A stretch of 64,000 nucleotides of DNA. Source: Ochrobactrum sp. Marseille-Q0166 (GTDB taxonomy: Bacteria; Pseudomonadota; Alphaproteobacteria; Rhizobiales; Rhizobiaceae). Both the position numbers and the translations under genes were made by a program. Where the stretch lies: assembly GCF_014397025.1 (NCBI RefSeq), contig NZ_JACJUO010000001.1, positions 2,218,501 through 2,282,500 on the forward strand. Direction: 5' to 3'. Below the pieces are notes generated by a model. The model did not search any database, was not told the DNA's origin, and was given only the letters and a program-made list of their open reading frames with translations. Shown here piece after piece: positions 545 through 25,824 of this stretch. How positions within the stretch are numbered: position 1 is the first letter of the stretch; each line of letters opens with the position of its first letter.

Positions 545-1783
545 GTTGCCAACCGCACCGCTGACTGTGCCACCCACTGTTCTGCCAAAGCGGTCGATCT
601 GCTCATTGTAAGTTCGGCGTGTATTCGGATCGAAGACAGCAATCGGCGCACTGACAACCAGCGAAGCGGCCGAGCCAACCCCCTGCGCCGTACCGAGAGC
701 CACTGCGCCGAGACGCTCACCCAGCCCGATATCGGAATCGGTGATGGTCTGGCCCGTGACGAGGCGCTGGCCGATCAACTGAACGACTTCCGGACTCGAT
801 GCAAACTTGCCATGATTGAGGCTGTCACCCGCCTTGAGCTGTGTAAGGTCAATCACCGTTATGCCAGCCTTCTCAAGCTGCGAGCGATAAGGCTCCACTG
901 ACGGATCGATCTGACCGAGACGATCAACATTGCCGGATATGAAGCGCGATGCCCGAAGCGCGCGATCATCACGCGAGGTAAACAGCGTGAAACGCGGATG
1001 TTCCTTGCCCATCGCACGGAACTGTTTGTTGAAAACATCGACATCGAGATCGGGGGAGGCAAGAATGACGTCGGTGATCTTGCGATCCACGCGCTTGTCG
1101 CGAATGGCCATCTGCCGCAAGGCTTCCACTGTCAGCCAGCTCCCCATGGAATGCGCCATGATCGTGATATCCTTGACGCGCGGGTCTTCGGCAATCTTGC
1201 GCAGCACGTTTTCCAGTGCATCACGCGAGTAATTGGTGCTTTCCTTGTCGTAATTGTAATCAAATACGCTGCCACGTGACGGCCATGTGAAAATAACAGG
1301 AGCAACATCAGCGCCTGAATCATGCACAATCTGCGCAAAGCGGTAGACCGAATCTTCAAATGTATTGTTGAAGCCGTGCACGAACACCATCACACGGCGT
1401 GATTTGGGTAGACTTTGATTGAGCCATTGCCGTGCACCCGTTTCGCTGTTTATGGCCTTCACCTCAACGGTCGTGAATTCCTTAAACGGATCAGCTGGCA
1501 ACTTCTTCGGCCACTGAACTTCACCGATTTTACGATTCTTATCCGGTGGAATTGAAACCACAATCTGCGTGAGACTTAGATCCTGATCGCGTTCTCCCGA
1601 GTATAAAGTTCCCGGATCACCAGAAGGTGCACGCGTCGTGGCAACCATAAGATTGACTTTAGAAGCACCCGGAACGCTTGCGGCAACAGGGATGAGGACA
1701 CCGTCCGGGCGGCTGGCGCAACCGGCAACGAGAGTCAGAATTATAAGCAATGCTGGGGCAGTACGACGAAATATGCTCCGCAA
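542..1783 (-). CDS. Lipoprotein of the DUF900 alpha/beta-hydrolase family
   Basis: About 413 residues. The TTG at 1781-1783 is preferred as start because AGGAG lies 9 bases upstream and the protein then opens with a clean lipoprotein signal: basic LRSIFRRT, a hydrophobic stretch, and lipobox LVAGC. A longer reading to 1873 would put about 30 odd residues ahead of it. The body carries VMVFVHGFNN (oxyanion region) and AHSMGSWL (nucleophile elbow GxSxG), as in DUF900 serine hydrolases. It should be anchored in the cell envelope facing the periplasm. The substrate is unknown. The stop overlaps a perfect dyad and panC follows downstream. Confidence 0.8.
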   Translation of the reverse strand: MRSIFRRTAPALLIILTLVAGCASRPDGVLIPVAASVPGASKVNLMVATTRAPSGDPGTLYSGERDQDLSLTQIVVSIPPDKNRKIGEVQWPKKLPADPFKEFTTVEVKAINSETGARQWLNQSLPKSRRVMVFVHGFNNTFEDSVYRFAQIVHDSGADVAPVIFTWPSRGSVFDYNYDKESTNYSRDALENVLRKIAEDPRVKDITIMAHSMGSWLTVEALRQMAIRDKRVDRKITDVILASPDLDVDVFNKQFRAMGKEHPRFTLFTSRDDRALRASRFISGNVDRLGQIDPSVEPYRSQLEKAGITVIDLTQLKAGDSLNHGKFASSPEVVQLIGQRLVTGQTITDSDIGLGERLGAVALGTAQGVGSAASLVVSAPIAVFDPNTRRTYNEQIDRFGRTVGGTVSGAVGN

Positions 1784-3660: not shown

Positions 3661-3800
3661 GATTAAAAAAAGAAAAAGGCCGCGCGGGAGGAGGATGCGC
3701 GGCCTGATCTTGAATACGGCTGGGAGGAGGAGATGCCGTATTCGTCATCGGGCTCTGGGAGGAGGAGTGAACCCGATGACCAATGTTTACCCGTAGCCTC
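3661..3800 (-). ncRNA. Small RNA with three CUCCUCCC-loop hairpins (cuckoo/CcsR type)
   Basis: Read on the minus strand, three hairpins follow each other: arms 3745-3752/3772-3779, 3713-3720/3735-3742 and 3677-3685/3697-3705. Every loop carries CTCCTCC or CTCCTCCC, complementary to Shine-Dalgarno sequences. The last hairpin is followed by CCTTTTTCTTTTTTT, a good intrinsic terminator, which fixes the strand. This matches the architecture of alphaproteobacterial CCUCCUCCC-motif RNAs (the cuckoo family, including Rhodobacter CcsR RNAs), which bind protein targets or mRNAs under stress and often sit near DUF1127 genes. A DUF1127 gene lies 2.6 kb away. The 5' end is estimated, and no clear promoter could be assigned. 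Confidence 0.8.
3677..3705 (-). terminator. Intrinsic terminator of the sRNA
   Basis: Nine-base GC-rich stem AGGCCGCGC/GCGCGGCCT with an 11-base loop holding the CTCCTCCC motif, followed on the minus strand by a T-rich tail at 3661-3676. Confidence 0.8.
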
Positions 3801-3823
3801 TTTATTCAACAACGGCCAATAAC

Positions 3824-3838
3824 GCATAACAGTTATGC
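3824..3838. promoter_or_regulatory. Perfect odd palindrome upstream of the sRNA
   Basis: GCATAAC-a-GTTATGC is a perfect 7-base inverted repeat about 45 bases upstream of the first sRNA hairpin. It could be a regulator site for the sRNA. No regulator family could be assigned from the sequence alone. Confidence 0.35.
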
Positions 3839-3879: not shown

Positions 3880-3906
3880 AAAAAACCTGCTCACAGAATG
3901 AGCAGG
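3880..3906 (-). terminator. Intrinsic terminator of lrgAB
   Basis: Stem CCTGCTCA/TGAGCAGG with a 5-base loop, followed on the minus strand by TTTTTT, 30 bases after the lrgB stop. Confidence 0.85.
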
Positions 3907-3936
3907 CCGAGAAAATTATTCTGTAAAAACAGCATT

Positions 3937-4632
3937 TCAGAGAAGGTGGGCGATGAATGGCGCAGCCAGAACATTGACCAATCCGACAAGCACCATCACG
4001 AGACCTGCAATCGAACCCTCCTCCGTGCCGATCTGGTGAGCCTTTGCCACGCCTGCGCCGTGCGCGCCCATGCCGAACAGTGCGCCGCGCGCCAAAGCCG
4101 AGCGGATCGGTAGCCAATTGAGCATCACTTCACCCATTGCGGCGCCGAATACACCAGTCAGGACCACAAAAATGGCCGTCAGGTCAGGCGTGCCGCCAAT
4201 ATCACCGGAAACCGTCATGGCAAAAGGGGTACTCATGGAACGCGGCATCAGGCTGAGACTGATTGCATCGTTGAGGCCAAGCAGATGTGCTAGTCCCCAA
4301 GCGGAGAGCATCGCAGACGAACTACCCACCAAAACCCCAACCAGCAGAACCGGCCAGTAACGGCGAATGGTTGCGCGCTGCTGATAAATCGGAATGGCAA
4401 AAGCCACTGTCGCAGGTCCGAGCAGCGCCACCAGCCAATGGGTTGCACTGAAATAACCACGATAGTTTTCATTCAGGCCGATAAGAAGCGCCATCAACAG
4501 CAACGGGGTAATGGCAAGTGGTGTCAACCACCACATTGGAAAGCGGCGATAGACACGTTTTGCAGCCAGATAGAGCAGTATTGTGGCTGCCGACCAGAAC
4601 AGCATCGCCACATAGGGATTACTTAGCGGCAT
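3937..4632 (-). CDS. lrgB: LrgB/CidB family membrane protein
   Basis: About 231 residues, start MPLSNPYVAML at 4632, so the reading frame overlaps the end of lrgA by 14 bases and is probably translationally coupled. A GTG at 4641 is possible too. Several hydrophobic segments run through the chain, with family signatures RSMSTPFAMTVSGDIGG and GMGAHGAGVAKAHQIGTEEGSIAG. LrgB works with LrgA in the cytoplasmic membrane in holin-like control of murein hydrolase activity, or as a small-metabolite (pyruvate-type) exporter in other bacteria. A terminator follows directly. Confidence 0.9.
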   Translation of the reverse strand: MPLSNPYVAMLFWSAATILLYLAAKRVYRRFPMWWLTPLAITPLLLMALLIGLNENYRGYFSATHWLVALLGPATVAFAIPIYQQRATIRRYWPVLLVGVLVGSSSAMLSAWGLAHLLGLNDAISLSLMPRSMSTPFAMTVSGDIGGTPDLTAIFVVLTGVFGAAMGEVMLNWLPIRSALARGALFGMGAHGAGVAKAHQIGTEEGSIAGLVMVLVGLVNVLAAPFIAHLL

Positions 4633-5026
4633 AGCGCACACTCAGGCGATAGCACATGTCGACGGTCAGTGCTGTCACAGTCATAACAGTCAATGTGCCG
4701 ACCAGGATAACAGCCATGATCTTTACGCCCAGCATTCCGAGCAGTTCCTGATGCTCAAGAACGGCGAGAACCGCAGGCACGAAGAACAGCAGCATTTCGG
4801 CCAGAAACCATTCCGCACCACGCTTCATGCTGAACAGGCTGATGCGACCGCTCAAGAGCAGAGCCAGAACAAGCGCCATACCAACAATGCCGCCCGGCAG
4901 TGGCAGACCAATAAGACGGACAAAAGCTTCACCCGCCAACCAGAAGCCGAACAGGGTTGCAATCTGCATCAGGCGACTGTTGTGCAGCGCGTAACGAAAG
5001 CGGATTGTCAAGCTGTGGGCGTTCAT
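4619..5026 (-). CDS. lrgA: LrgA/CidA holin-like membrane protein
   Basis: About 135 residues. MNAHSLTIRFRY at 5026 is preferred because GGAA lies seven bases upstream; the ATG at 5044 lacks a ribosome site. Four hydrophobic stretches and the family motif LPLPGGIVGMALVL are visible, together with WFLAEMLLFFVPAVLAVLEH. It forms a two-gene operon with lrgB and is divergent from a LysR regulator, the arrangement known for cidABR/lrgAB loci. Two dyads in the shared promoter region suggest control by that regulator. Confidence 0.9.
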   Translation of the reverse strand: MNAHSLTIRFRYALHNSRLMQIATLFGFWLAGEAFVRLIGLPLPGGIVGMALVLALLLSGRISLFSMKRGAEWFLAEMLLFFVPAVLAVLEHQELLGMLGVKIMAVILVGTLTVMTVTALTVDMCYRLSVRYAAK

Positions 5027-5129: not shown

Positions 5130-6020
5130 ATGAACTTACGCAGCTTTCAGGCTTTCGTGGAAGTGGTGCGACAGGGCGGCTTTTCAGCGGCTGCCCGCAC
5201 CATCAACGCCACTCAATCCACCGTCAGCAAGACGGTGCGACAGCTCGAAGAAGAACTCGGGCTGCCTCTGCTCGATCGTGATGTTACCCCTCCCCGCCTG
5301 ACAAATGCGGGCGAAATCGTCTATAGCCGCGCCTTAGCCATGTTGACCGAAAAAGATGACATGCTGACAGAGCTTGGTGAGTTGCGCGGTCTCAAACGCG
5401 GTCTCCTGCGTCTTGGCCTGCCACCCATTGGTTCCAGCGTCCTGTTTGCACCCGTCTTCGCCGCCTTTACCAAGCTCTACCCCGACATCGATATTCAGCT
5501 TGTCGAACATGGCAGCAAGCGACTGGAAGAATTGCTGCTGGCTGGCGACGTAGAACTCGCTGGCCTGCTTCTGCCCGTTGAAGAAAGCTTCGAGTGGCAG
5601 GCAATTCGTGGTGAACCAGTCGTGGCGCTGCTCCCTGCCGATCACGGCTTTATCGACGATGGCGGCATTCTGTTGTCTGATATTGTGAGTCTGCCCTTCA
5701 TTCTTTTTGAAAGCGGCTTCGCACTCAATCAAATCATTCTCGACGCCTGTCATCAGCGCGGATTATTCCCCCATGTCGCTGTCCGCTCCAGCCAGATCGA
5801 TTTTATTGTCGAACTGGTGGCCGCTGGCATGGGCATTGGATTTCTTCCGCAAATGATCGCTGAACAGCGCAAGAATCCTGGCGTCTGCATCCATCAAATC
5901 CGGGATGCAGAGATAAACTGGGACATGGCTCTGGTCTGGCGCAAAAATGCGTTTCTTTCCCATGCAGCAAAAGCGTGGCTTGAACTGTGCAAAAGCCGAA
6001 ACAGCAGCGCAGCAACTTGA
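5130..6020 (+). CDS. LysR-family regulator, probable controller of lrgAB
   Basis: About 296 residues. The N-terminal winged helix-turn-helix is clear: MNLRSFQAFVEVVRQGGF, AARTINATQSTVSKTVRQLE (about 1-60). The rest is a LysR substrate-binding domain, for example LRLGLPPIGSSVLFAPVF and VAAGMGIGFLPQMI. LysR proteins bind DNA as tetramers and sense a small ligand in the cytosol. The divergent position and shared dyads suggest it controls lrgAB as CidR does, but the effector is unknown. Confidence 0.85.
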   Translation: MNLRSFQAFVEVVRQGGFSAAARTINATQSTVSKTVRQLEEELGLPLLDRDVTPPRLTNAGEIVYSRALAMLTEKDDMLTELGELRGLKRGLLRLGLPPIGSSVLFAPVFAAFTKLYPDIDIQLVEHGSKRLEELLLAGDVELAGLLLPVEESFEWQAIRGEPVVALLPADHGFIDDGGILLSDIVSLPFILFESGFALNQIILDACHQRGLFPHVAVRSSQIDFIVELVAAGMGIGFLPQMIAEQRKNPGVCIHQIRDAEINWDMALVWRKNAFLSHAAKAWLELCKSRNSSAAT

Positions 6021-6481: not shown

Positions 6482-6766
6482 AGTGGTATCCCCTTATGGT
6501 GAGCACCTTTTCAGTGCTGCATTTTTACCTTCCTCCCACCATGAAGCTTCCGCCTTTTTAATCGTTTTGAGAAGTGCATAAACCGCATGGCTGCATTGCT
6601 ATGCTGCGCGCACTGCCGCTCCCTTGATAACGCAATCCTTCAAACCTGACGATAAAGTGATCGTTGATTCCTCCCCTAAGTGTGAGGGATTTGCGTTAGT
6701 ACATTGTAGTTGACTTAATTTACATAAATTGGTGGGCCTTTAATTGGCGAAGAAGACTTCGAACAC

Positions 6767-25711: not shown

Positions 25712-25721
25712 AAAAGTGTTC

Positions 25722-25773
25722 CGTGGTGATTTGGCCGGCCGGCTTGCAGCCACGTTAAAGAATTCGCTAAAAT
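25722..25773 (+). ncRNA. SAM-II riboswitch
   Basis: The segment has the SAM-II core: GTGGTGATTTG, then GGCCGGCTTGCAGCCAC, TTAAAGAA and GCTAAA. GTGG pairs with CCAC and GCTAAA closes the pseudoknot, as in the Agrobacterium metA element. SAM-II binds S-adenosylmethionine and lowers methionine-synthesis genes; here it lies about 110 bases before metZ. Confidence 0.9.
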
Positions 25774-25824
25774 AAGGCCGCGGTTCGTTACCGGCCTTTT
25801 GCGTGTTCGCGAGGCCGGTTTTTT
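25774..25824 (+). terminator. Two competing hairpins after SAM-II, one a terminator
   Basis: AAGGCCG (25774-25780) can pair with CGGCCTT (25792-25798). Alternatively ACCGGCC (25790-25796) pairs with GGCCGGT (25813-25819), followed by a six-T run ending at 25824. They share the CCGGCC segment, so they exclude each other, the layout of an attenuator. Confidence 0.7.

What the first reader, a model, noticed from the sequence alone, without database searches (positions are those of the whole stretch)
3661..3800. Three-hairpin CUCCUCCC small RNA with a terminator as its last loop
Seen: three tandem hairpins, every loop holding an anti-Shine-Dalgarno motif, and a T-rich tail that fixes the minus strand. 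Known: CCUCCUCCC-motif (cuckoo/CcsR-type) RNAs usually have two such loops. Inferred: a member with three loops, next to lrgAB and not far from a DUF1127 gene, possibly controlled through the palindrome at 3824.
Basis: partly seen in the sequence, partly recalled or inferred. Interest (0 to 1): 0.7.

Follow-up and report, generated by a model that had tools for sequence, protein, structure and literature searches.

The report
Three-loop ribosome-site-blocking RNA (αr14)
The finding is a small regulatory RNA of a family already described (αr14), for which three loops are normal; the useful extra is that most of its gene copies in this group of bacteria carry the same likely switch sequence for one regulator, LsrB/VtlR.

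Summary
On the minus strand, 3784-3672 folds into three hairpins, each loop holding CCUCCUCCC, the last a terminator (MFE -54.5 kcal/mol, z -9.6). It is not a new three-loop cuckoo RNA: it matches Rfam RF02344 (ar14) end to end at 81.9 bits (cut-off 58.8), and three such loops are the published norm of αr14 (NfeR1 and relatives). This genome has four copies over cut-off; orthologues of this one occur in 34 of 35 genus genomes, with compensatory stem changes. The palindrome at 3824 contains the published LsrB/VtlR box GCAT-N3-TG-N3-T. All four copies here have the box upstream, two through a DUF1127 gene in front. Of 144 genus arrays surveyed, 58 of 58 DUF1127-linked and 75 of 86 stand-alone ones have it, 73 of those 75 at one offset; outside the genus 19 of 46 do. 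Best reading: an NfeR1-like trans-acting sRNA switched on by LsrB/VtlR that blocks Shine-Dalgarno sites. Transcript, regulation and targets are inferred, not shown.

The parts
3672..3784 (-). αr14 small RNA gene (full-length Rfam RF02344 match, model positions 1-123)
   Evidence: cmscan 81.9 bits, gathering cut-off 58.8; inferred transcript about 3779 to about 3668
3744..3780 (-). hairpin 1, 12-bp stem, loop 3756-3768 with CUCCUCCUCCC
   Evidence: MFE fold, inverted repeat, compensatory changes in orthologues
3712..3743 (-). hairpin 2, 9-bp stem, loop 3721-3734 with CUCCUCCUCCC
   Evidence: MFE fold; no two-sided change among orthologues, compensatory changes among diverse copies
3668..3705 (-). 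hairpin 3 (9-bp GC-rich stem, loop CCUCCUCCC) plus U-rich tail: intrinsic terminator carrying the third anti-SD loop
   Evidence: fold, inverted repeat, read from sequence; the terminator scan, which allows loops of 3-8 only, did not list it
3824..3838 (.). 15-bp palindrome GCATAACWGTTATGC; its minus-strand 3838-3826 is GCATAACTGTTAT, a full match to the published VtlR/LsrB box GCAT-N3-TG-N3-T
   Evidence: the form GCATAACNGNYATGC is kept in 34 of 34 orthologues, the perfect symmetry is not
3785..3813 (-). inferred promoter: -35-like GTTGTT 3813-3808, 17-nt spacer, -10-like GTAAAC 3790-3785
   Evidence: same offsets as CTTGTA-N17-CTATTT of the paralogue L001 (sequences); weak; the sigma-70 consensus scan found none
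3884..3908 (-). intrinsic terminator between lrgB and the sRNA gene
   Evidence: 11 pairs then a T run (0.5 such sites expected in shuffles)
3937..4641 (-). lrgB, neighbouring gene, not part of the RNA
   Evidence: PF04172, 245 bits
4619..5044 (-). lrgA, neighbouring gene
   Evidence: PF03788, 82.6 bits
6332..6481 (-). DUF1127 gene (49 aa) without an αr14 array in the 420 bp read behind it
   Evidence: PF06568, 54.0 bits; translation; downstream sequence
6585..6597 (+). VtlR/LsrB box GCATGGCTGCATT upstream of that DUF1127 gene

Best explanation
This is an αr14 (NfeR1-type) trans-acting small RNA of about 110-115 nt with its own promoter. Shown: family membership, structure, conservation, terminator, and a conserved LsrB/VtlR box. 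Inferred: LsrB/VtlR binds the palindrome, roughly 47-59 bp upstream of the deduced start, and activates transcription, as shown for nfeR1 in Sinorhizobium meliloti; the three identical loops then pair, redundantly, with Shine-Dalgarno regions of many mRNAs (mostly transporter mRNAs predicted in S. meliloti) and block translation. In this genus the same regulator probably drives the other αr14 copies too, two of those in this genome as 3' parts of DUF1127 transcripts.
For: Rfam ar14 full-length match. Fold z -9.57. Orthologue in 34 of 35 genus genomes. Two-sided compensatory changes in 3 of 30 pairs among 34 orthologues and 17 of 22 pairs among 31 diverse copies. Box upstream of 4 of 4 copies over cut-off in this genome, against 912 boxes in 4.44 Mb, i.e. 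about 0.03 per 150 bp. Genus survey: 58 of 58 DUF1127-linked and 75 of 86 stand-alone arrays with the box, 73 of the 75 at -69 to -74 from the first loop; the 11 without it match 6 of 7 fixed bases near the same offset, though 26 of 257 control windows also reach that. Downstream 130-bp control windows with the exact box: 5 of 143. One abcR gene, a known kind of LsrB/VtlR target, has the box at -63. A LysR gene next to trxB (C1:1125214-1126119) matches the solved LsrB chain over its whole length, E 4.5e-147. LsrB activates nfeR1 and aSD loops silence mRNAs in S. meliloti (PMC10746234, PMC7143759, passages read).
Against: No transcript, binding or target was tested. In S. meliloti only one of six copies gave a reliably detected RNA (PMC7143759, passages read), so a copy, even with a motif, need not be active. 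The -35/-10 here is poor and the promoter scan found none. The survey rows are related genomes and paralogues, so counts are not independent. Outside the genus only 19 of 46 arrays had the exact box. Published VtlR regulons of Brucella name AbcR2 and three DUF1127 genes, not αr14 (PMC12595884, passages read), and in Agrobacterium a genome search with the 15-bp VtlR consensus gave one further site only, vrsA (PMC7486931, passages read).
Confidence: 0.78

Rival explanations
1. A CcsR/cuckoo RNA of the Rhodobacter CIN1 type, made as the 3' part of a DUF1127 transcript and cut out by RNase E.
For: Same loop motif; two paralogues in this genome do follow a DUF1127 gene, and the CIN1 arrangement is described as frequent in alphaproteobacteria (PMC10253847, passages read).
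Against: The window copy follows lrgB, not a DUF1127 gene, with a terminator in between, and has its own conserved box at the stand-alone offset.
Confidence: 0.04
2. A 3' end fragment of the lrgAB transcript released by processing.
For: Same strand, about 150 bp behind lrgB; an lrgB-like end is visible by eye in many of the 30 orthologue rows.
Against: An intrinsic terminator lies between, and the best conserved stretch upstream is the regulator box.
Confidence: 0.04
3. αr14 RNA as above, but the palindrome binds another protein, or the copy is silent or controlled otherwise.
For: The 13-base pattern is short: 20 occur in the window against 16.2 expected. A different LysR gene stands beside lrgAB at 5130-6020. 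Most S. meliloti copies were not detected (PMC7143759, passages read).
Against: The box is at the same offset as in the paralogue L001, kept in 34 of 34 orthologues, and shared by DUF1127 and abcR promoters, the known VtlR targets.
Confidence: 0.15

Closest known systems
αr14 family, Rfam RF02344 (NfeR1/Smr14C2/SmelC397 of Sinorhizobium meliloti)
   Same: Full-length covariance match, three hairpins with identical CCUCCUCCC loops, variable stems, terminator as hairpin 3, several copies per genome, LsrB-type box upstream
   Different: No NtrC site was looked for in this copy; the authors report that the NtrC signature is not evident in Brucella promoters (PMC10746234, passages read)
CcsR1-4 / CIN1 locus of Rhodobacter sphaeroides (cuckoo RNAs)
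   Same: Anti-SD loops in tandem hairpins; DUF1127 association in two paralogues of this genome
   Different: Two hairpins per RNA (PMC3927594, for RSs0680a; that this is a CcsR RNA is recalled), DUF1127 in front and RpoHI/RpoHII promoter there (PMC10253847); the window copy has three hairpins and no DUF1127 in front
AbcR1/AbcR2 (αr15, RF02345)
   Same: Anti-SD RNAs in the same genome; one copy has the same LsrB/VtlR box
   Different: Other fold and family; two different aSD sites (PMC8844928, passages read)
SmelA075 / SmelA099 RNA family models (three- and four-hairpin CCUCCUCCC RNAs)
   Same: Module counts three and four, as in stand-alone and many DUF1127-linked copies here
   Different: Modelled from S. 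meliloti; no link to LsrB/VtlR in the passages read (PMC3927594)

Membership tests
αr14 (RF02344) | covariance-model score above the curated cut-off | tested here: met
   81.9 vs 58.8 bits, positions 1-123 of 123
αr14 (RF02344) | three hairpins, CCUCCUCCC unpaired in every loop | tested here: met
   sequence
αr14 (RF02344) | stem sequence varies while pairing is kept | tested here: met
   17 of 22 predicted pairs with two-sided changes among 31 copies; among orthologues only 3 of 30, all in hairpin 1, hairpins 2 and 3 nearly invariant
αr14 (RF02344) | conserved regulatory motif upstream of a sigma-70 promoter | tested here: inconclusive
   motif kept in 34 of 34 orthologues; -35/-10 weak and not found by the scan
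αr14 (RF02344) | expressed RNA of about 115 nt that silences mRNAs through the aSD loops | not testable with these tools
   needs RNA and reporter data
CcsR / CIN1 locus | DUF1127 gene directly upstream in the same transcript | tested here: not met
   upstream gene is lrgB with a terminator between; a DUF1127 gene is directly upstream of paralogues L002 and L004, co-transcription not tested
CcsR / CIN1 locus | two aSD hairpins per RNA | tested here: not met
   three
CcsR / CIN1 locus | RpoHI/RpoHII promoter | not tested
   -
LsrB/VtlR regulon | box GCAT-N3-TG-N3-T upstream of the promoter | tested here: met
   3838-3826 minus strand
LsrB/VtlR regulon | binding by, and dependence on, the regulator | not testable with these tools
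   needs gel shift and a deletion strain
LsrB/VtlR regulon | regulator encoded in this genome | tested here: met
   LysR gene next to trxB, E 4.5e-147 to LsrB structure 9HH1; NCBIfam has no matching named model above its cut-off in the 25 shown

The most novel reading that the evidence does not exclude
In the Brucella/Ochrobactrum genus LsrB/VtlR is the common activator of the αr14 set: stand-alone copies such as this one directly, and the others as 3' modules of the DUF1127 transcripts already known as VtlR targets. The αr14 RNAs would then be an overlooked arm of the VtlR regulon and could carry effects of vtlR loss that AbcR2 and the DUF1127 proteins do not explain.
Probability: 0.5. Interest if true: 0.55.

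Novelty: new member of a known kind. Interest (0 to 1): 0.33.

Why it matters
The RNA itself is a routine member of a curated family. The promoter pattern is the useful part: it turns 'which regulator controls the many αr14 copies' into a direct test, and it joins two stories printed apart in the papers I could read, the LsrB-NfeR1 circuit of S. meliloti and the VtlR-DUF1127-AbcR2 regulon of Brucella. In B. melitensis, supplying AbcR2 and the three DUF1127 genes did not restore a vtlR mutant (PMC12595884, passages read), and its authors name further regulated genes as worth study; the αr14 RNAs are candidates.

Tried and rejected
Considered and dropped: a new three-loop variant of CcsR (three loops are the αr14 norm); the palindrome as a widespread operator of that exact sequence (in this genome one exact place and one place with one mismatch); an lrgAB 3' fragment (terminator between). 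The longer pattern TTTGCATAACNNNNATGCNTTA served as a tag for orthologues: in the genome collection 26 of 61 stretches have a three-motif array right behind it (counted from the printed rows); the other 35 have none and are from many phyla, presumably chance. In this genome, with up to 3 mismatches, it gave 14 other places against 9 for the reversed-pattern control; I did not look into them. The first DUF1127 detector used too strict a pattern and found none; it was replaced, and only one search is used for that split. The sub-cut-off fifth hit L005 (32.6 bits) gave no array and is not counted. A plasmid-collection search gave no match. mRNA targets were not predicted.

Survey rows dropped: one search found 158 arrays; 144 were kept after leaving out second views of the same place, neighbouring arrays and L024 (another genus). 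In one search, arrays identical in sequence and in the 200 bp upstream were merged, and one search's listing was cut short, so some copies of the 35 genomes are not in the survey. Of the 75 stand-alone arrays with the box, two have it off the common offset: L215 at -37, with a 6-of-7 match at the usual place, and L231 at -107, where the counter seems to have missed the first hairpin. In one search I aligned 30 loci, the 34 orthologues less four; searches use all 34. In one search I used 31 chosen copies (27 of the 28 picked, this copy and three orthologues); the fixed 116-base cut truncates hairpin 3 in many of them. The 31 loci are the 30 given for the best scores plus L024, not a random draw.

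Full report
Observation. Read on the minus strand, 3784 to 3668 gives three hairpins with 12-, 9- and 9-bp stems, each loop holding CCUCCUCCC, the last followed by UUUUUCUUUU. The fold is -54.5 kcal/mol against -25.8 (sd 3) for shuffles, z -9.57, 0 of 200 shuffles as good. CTCCTCCTCCC occurs twice in the 64-kb window, both here, with none expected.

Identity. Rfam calls this stretch RF02344, ar14, 81.9 bits against a cut-off of 58.8, positions 1-123 of 123; it is one of two Rfam matches over cut-off in the window. The genome holds four copies over the cut-off and one weak hit below it. Of 60 genomes searched (this one and relatives), 45 have a match at E 0.001 and 37 exceed the cut-off; all 35 genomes of the genus are among the 45. 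Of 151 genomes drawn from the family, 146 match and 137 exceed the cut-off. The 14 control genomes show none. Named genomes with the orthologue's promoter pattern in front of a three-motif array are Brucella, Ochrobactrum and Falsochrobactrum species and unnamed Rhizobiales, so the window very likely comes from that group. With three contigs and 4.44 Mb it does not look like a classical Brucella of about 3.3 Mb and two chromosomes (those figures are recalled).

What is known. [quoted passage not shown] it adds that S. meliloti has six copies but only one reliably detected by Northern blot (PMC7143759, passages read). The NfeR1 paper repeats the structure, shows LsrB activation and NtrC repression of nfeR1, and reports redundant use of the three loops in silencing (PMC10746234, passages read). 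A 2011 survey describes CCUCCUCCC RNAs with two, three and four modules and suggests one family (PMC3927594, passages read). CcsR-like RNAs with DUF1127 genes were named the CIN1 locus (PMC10253847, passages read). The cuckoo-RNA paper, the CcaF1 paper and an Agrobacterium LsrB-sRNA paper are not held; of the last I saw only its title in a reference list, and it may already cover αr14 in Agrobacterium. A review of Brucella sRNAs and a paper on their regulators held no hit for r14 or NfeR/NfeR1 (PMC9751625, PMC12772402, term look-ups); the RNA could stand there under another name.

Conservation. A DNA search finds this locus in 34 of 35 genus genomes; the one miss is 72% complete. Among 34 orthologues 3 of 30 pairs show two-sided compensatory change, all in hairpin 1; hairpins 2 and 3 hardly vary, so they say little. 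Among 31 diverse copies 17 of 22 pairs do, although cells that break pairs also occur there, partly from alignment and truncation.

The palindrome. 3838-3826 on the minus strand reads GCATAACTGTTAT, a full match to GCAT-N3-TG-N3-T, the box described as confirmed for VtlR in Brucella abortus and hypothesized in Agrobacterium (PMC7486931, passages read) and seen in the LsrB-activated abcR1 promoter of S. meliloti at -61 to -49 (PMC8844928, passages read). The box is kept in 34 of 34 orthologues; the perfect symmetry of this copy is not, the commonest form being GCATAACTGATAT (21 of 34). Laying this copy against paralogue L001 puts the box at -54 from the model start in both, followed 25 nt after the box start by a -35-like hexamer, 17 nt and a -10-like hexamer (read); with a start near 3779 the box lies at about -59 to -47. 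That start is inferred; the promoter scan found nothing.

The box across the family. In this genome it stands upstream of 4 of 4 αr14 copies over cut-off: directly for the two stand-alone copies, and upstream of the DUF1127 gene for the two copies that follow one. The genome has 912 such boxes, about 0.03 per 150 bp, so four of four by chance would be near 1e-6 if the copies were independent, which as paralogues they are not fully. Of six DUF1127 genes found, the two linked ones and the one in this window have it within about 125 bp; the other three have none that near. One of two abcR copies has it; the other has none from -250 to +20. In 144 genus arrays, 58 of 58 DUF1127-linked ones have the box within 150 bp upstream of the DUF1127 start, all in reverse orientation, and 75 of 86 stand-alone ones within 130 bp. 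Of these 75, 73 lie at -69 to -74 from the first loop motif, 61 of them in forward orientation. The 11 without the exact box match 6 of 7 fixed bases near the same offset, a level that 26 of 257 control windows also reach. Other windows of the stand-alone loci give 0 to 2 of 85-86 exact boxes, apart from one stretch further upstream with 13 of 85; other windows of the DUF1127-linked loci give 0 to 2 of 19-58. Downstream control windows: 5 of 143. Among 46 arrays in 31 loci from other genera only 19 have the exact box, so the rule is tight in the genus and loose outside. The shorter core GCATANCTG (144 sites) was chosen after seeing the sites and is not used as a test.

The regulator. A LysR gene beside trxB lies about 1.4 kb before an abcR gene, in keeping with the arrangement reported for vtlR (PMC12595884, PMC7486931, passages read). 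It matches chain 9HH1 over its full length, E 4.5e-147, and 9HH1 is the LsrB structure of the Agrobacterium paper (PMC11975290, passages read).

Mechanism. Shown here: the family, the structure, the conserved box, a separate terminator for lrgAB. Inferred from the studied relative: activation by LsrB/VtlR, and silencing of mRNAs by pairing of any of the three loops with Shine-Dalgarno regions. Adjacency to lrgAB is probably only location.

Number of loops. By a simple motif-plus-stem counter, 112 of 144 arrays have three, 27 four, 5 two. All 27 four-motif arrays are DUF1127-linked; stand-alone arrays have three in 85 of 86, and the one exception seems to be a missed first hairpin. All 34 orthologues of the window copy have three.

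Novelty. The RNA is a new member of a known kind. That the αr14 copies of this genus sit under an LsrB/VtlR box, partly through DUF1127 genes, was not stated in the passages I read; searches combining VtlR, LsrB, NfeR1, DUF1127, CIN1, cuckoo and aSD terms listed no paper that I recognised as making the link for Brucella, but I read passages only and the library lacks most subscription papers. The NfeR1 work did align Brucella promoters and noted a conserved stretch (PMC10746234), so the link is a short step from print.

Noticed in passing
window 25713-25793 (+): Alphaproteobacterial SAM riboswitch (SAM_alpha, RF00521), 79.8 bits against a cut-off of 36.
   Followed up: no
L002, about 1468-1621 (+): A four-motif αr14 array directly behind a DUF1127 gene; the Rfam match (1501-1621) covers only the last three hairpins.
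   Followed up: partly
L004, about 1459-1489 (+): Between a DUF1127 gene and a three-motif array stands a further hairpin whose loop lacks the anti-SD motif, possibly a decayed module.
   Followed up: no
L182, L190, L192, L194, L197 and others of the genus survey: Two αr14 arrays on opposite strands about 0.7 kb apart.
   Followed up: no
L245, L246, L248, L251, L253, L255, L256, L262 (other genera): Tandem αr14 arrays about 300 bp apart in which the first lacks the exact LsrB/VtlR box and a later one has it.
   Followed up: no
window 5130-6020 (+): LysR-family gene divergent from lrgAB; not the trxB-linked LsrB/VtlR gene of this genome.
   Followed up: partly
L151 1501-1609 (+): Second abcR (αr15) copy, on contig C2, with no LsrB/VtlR box from -250 to +20.
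   Followed up: no
L004 193-282 (-): Glycine riboswitch aptamer, 61.4 bits.
   Followed up: no
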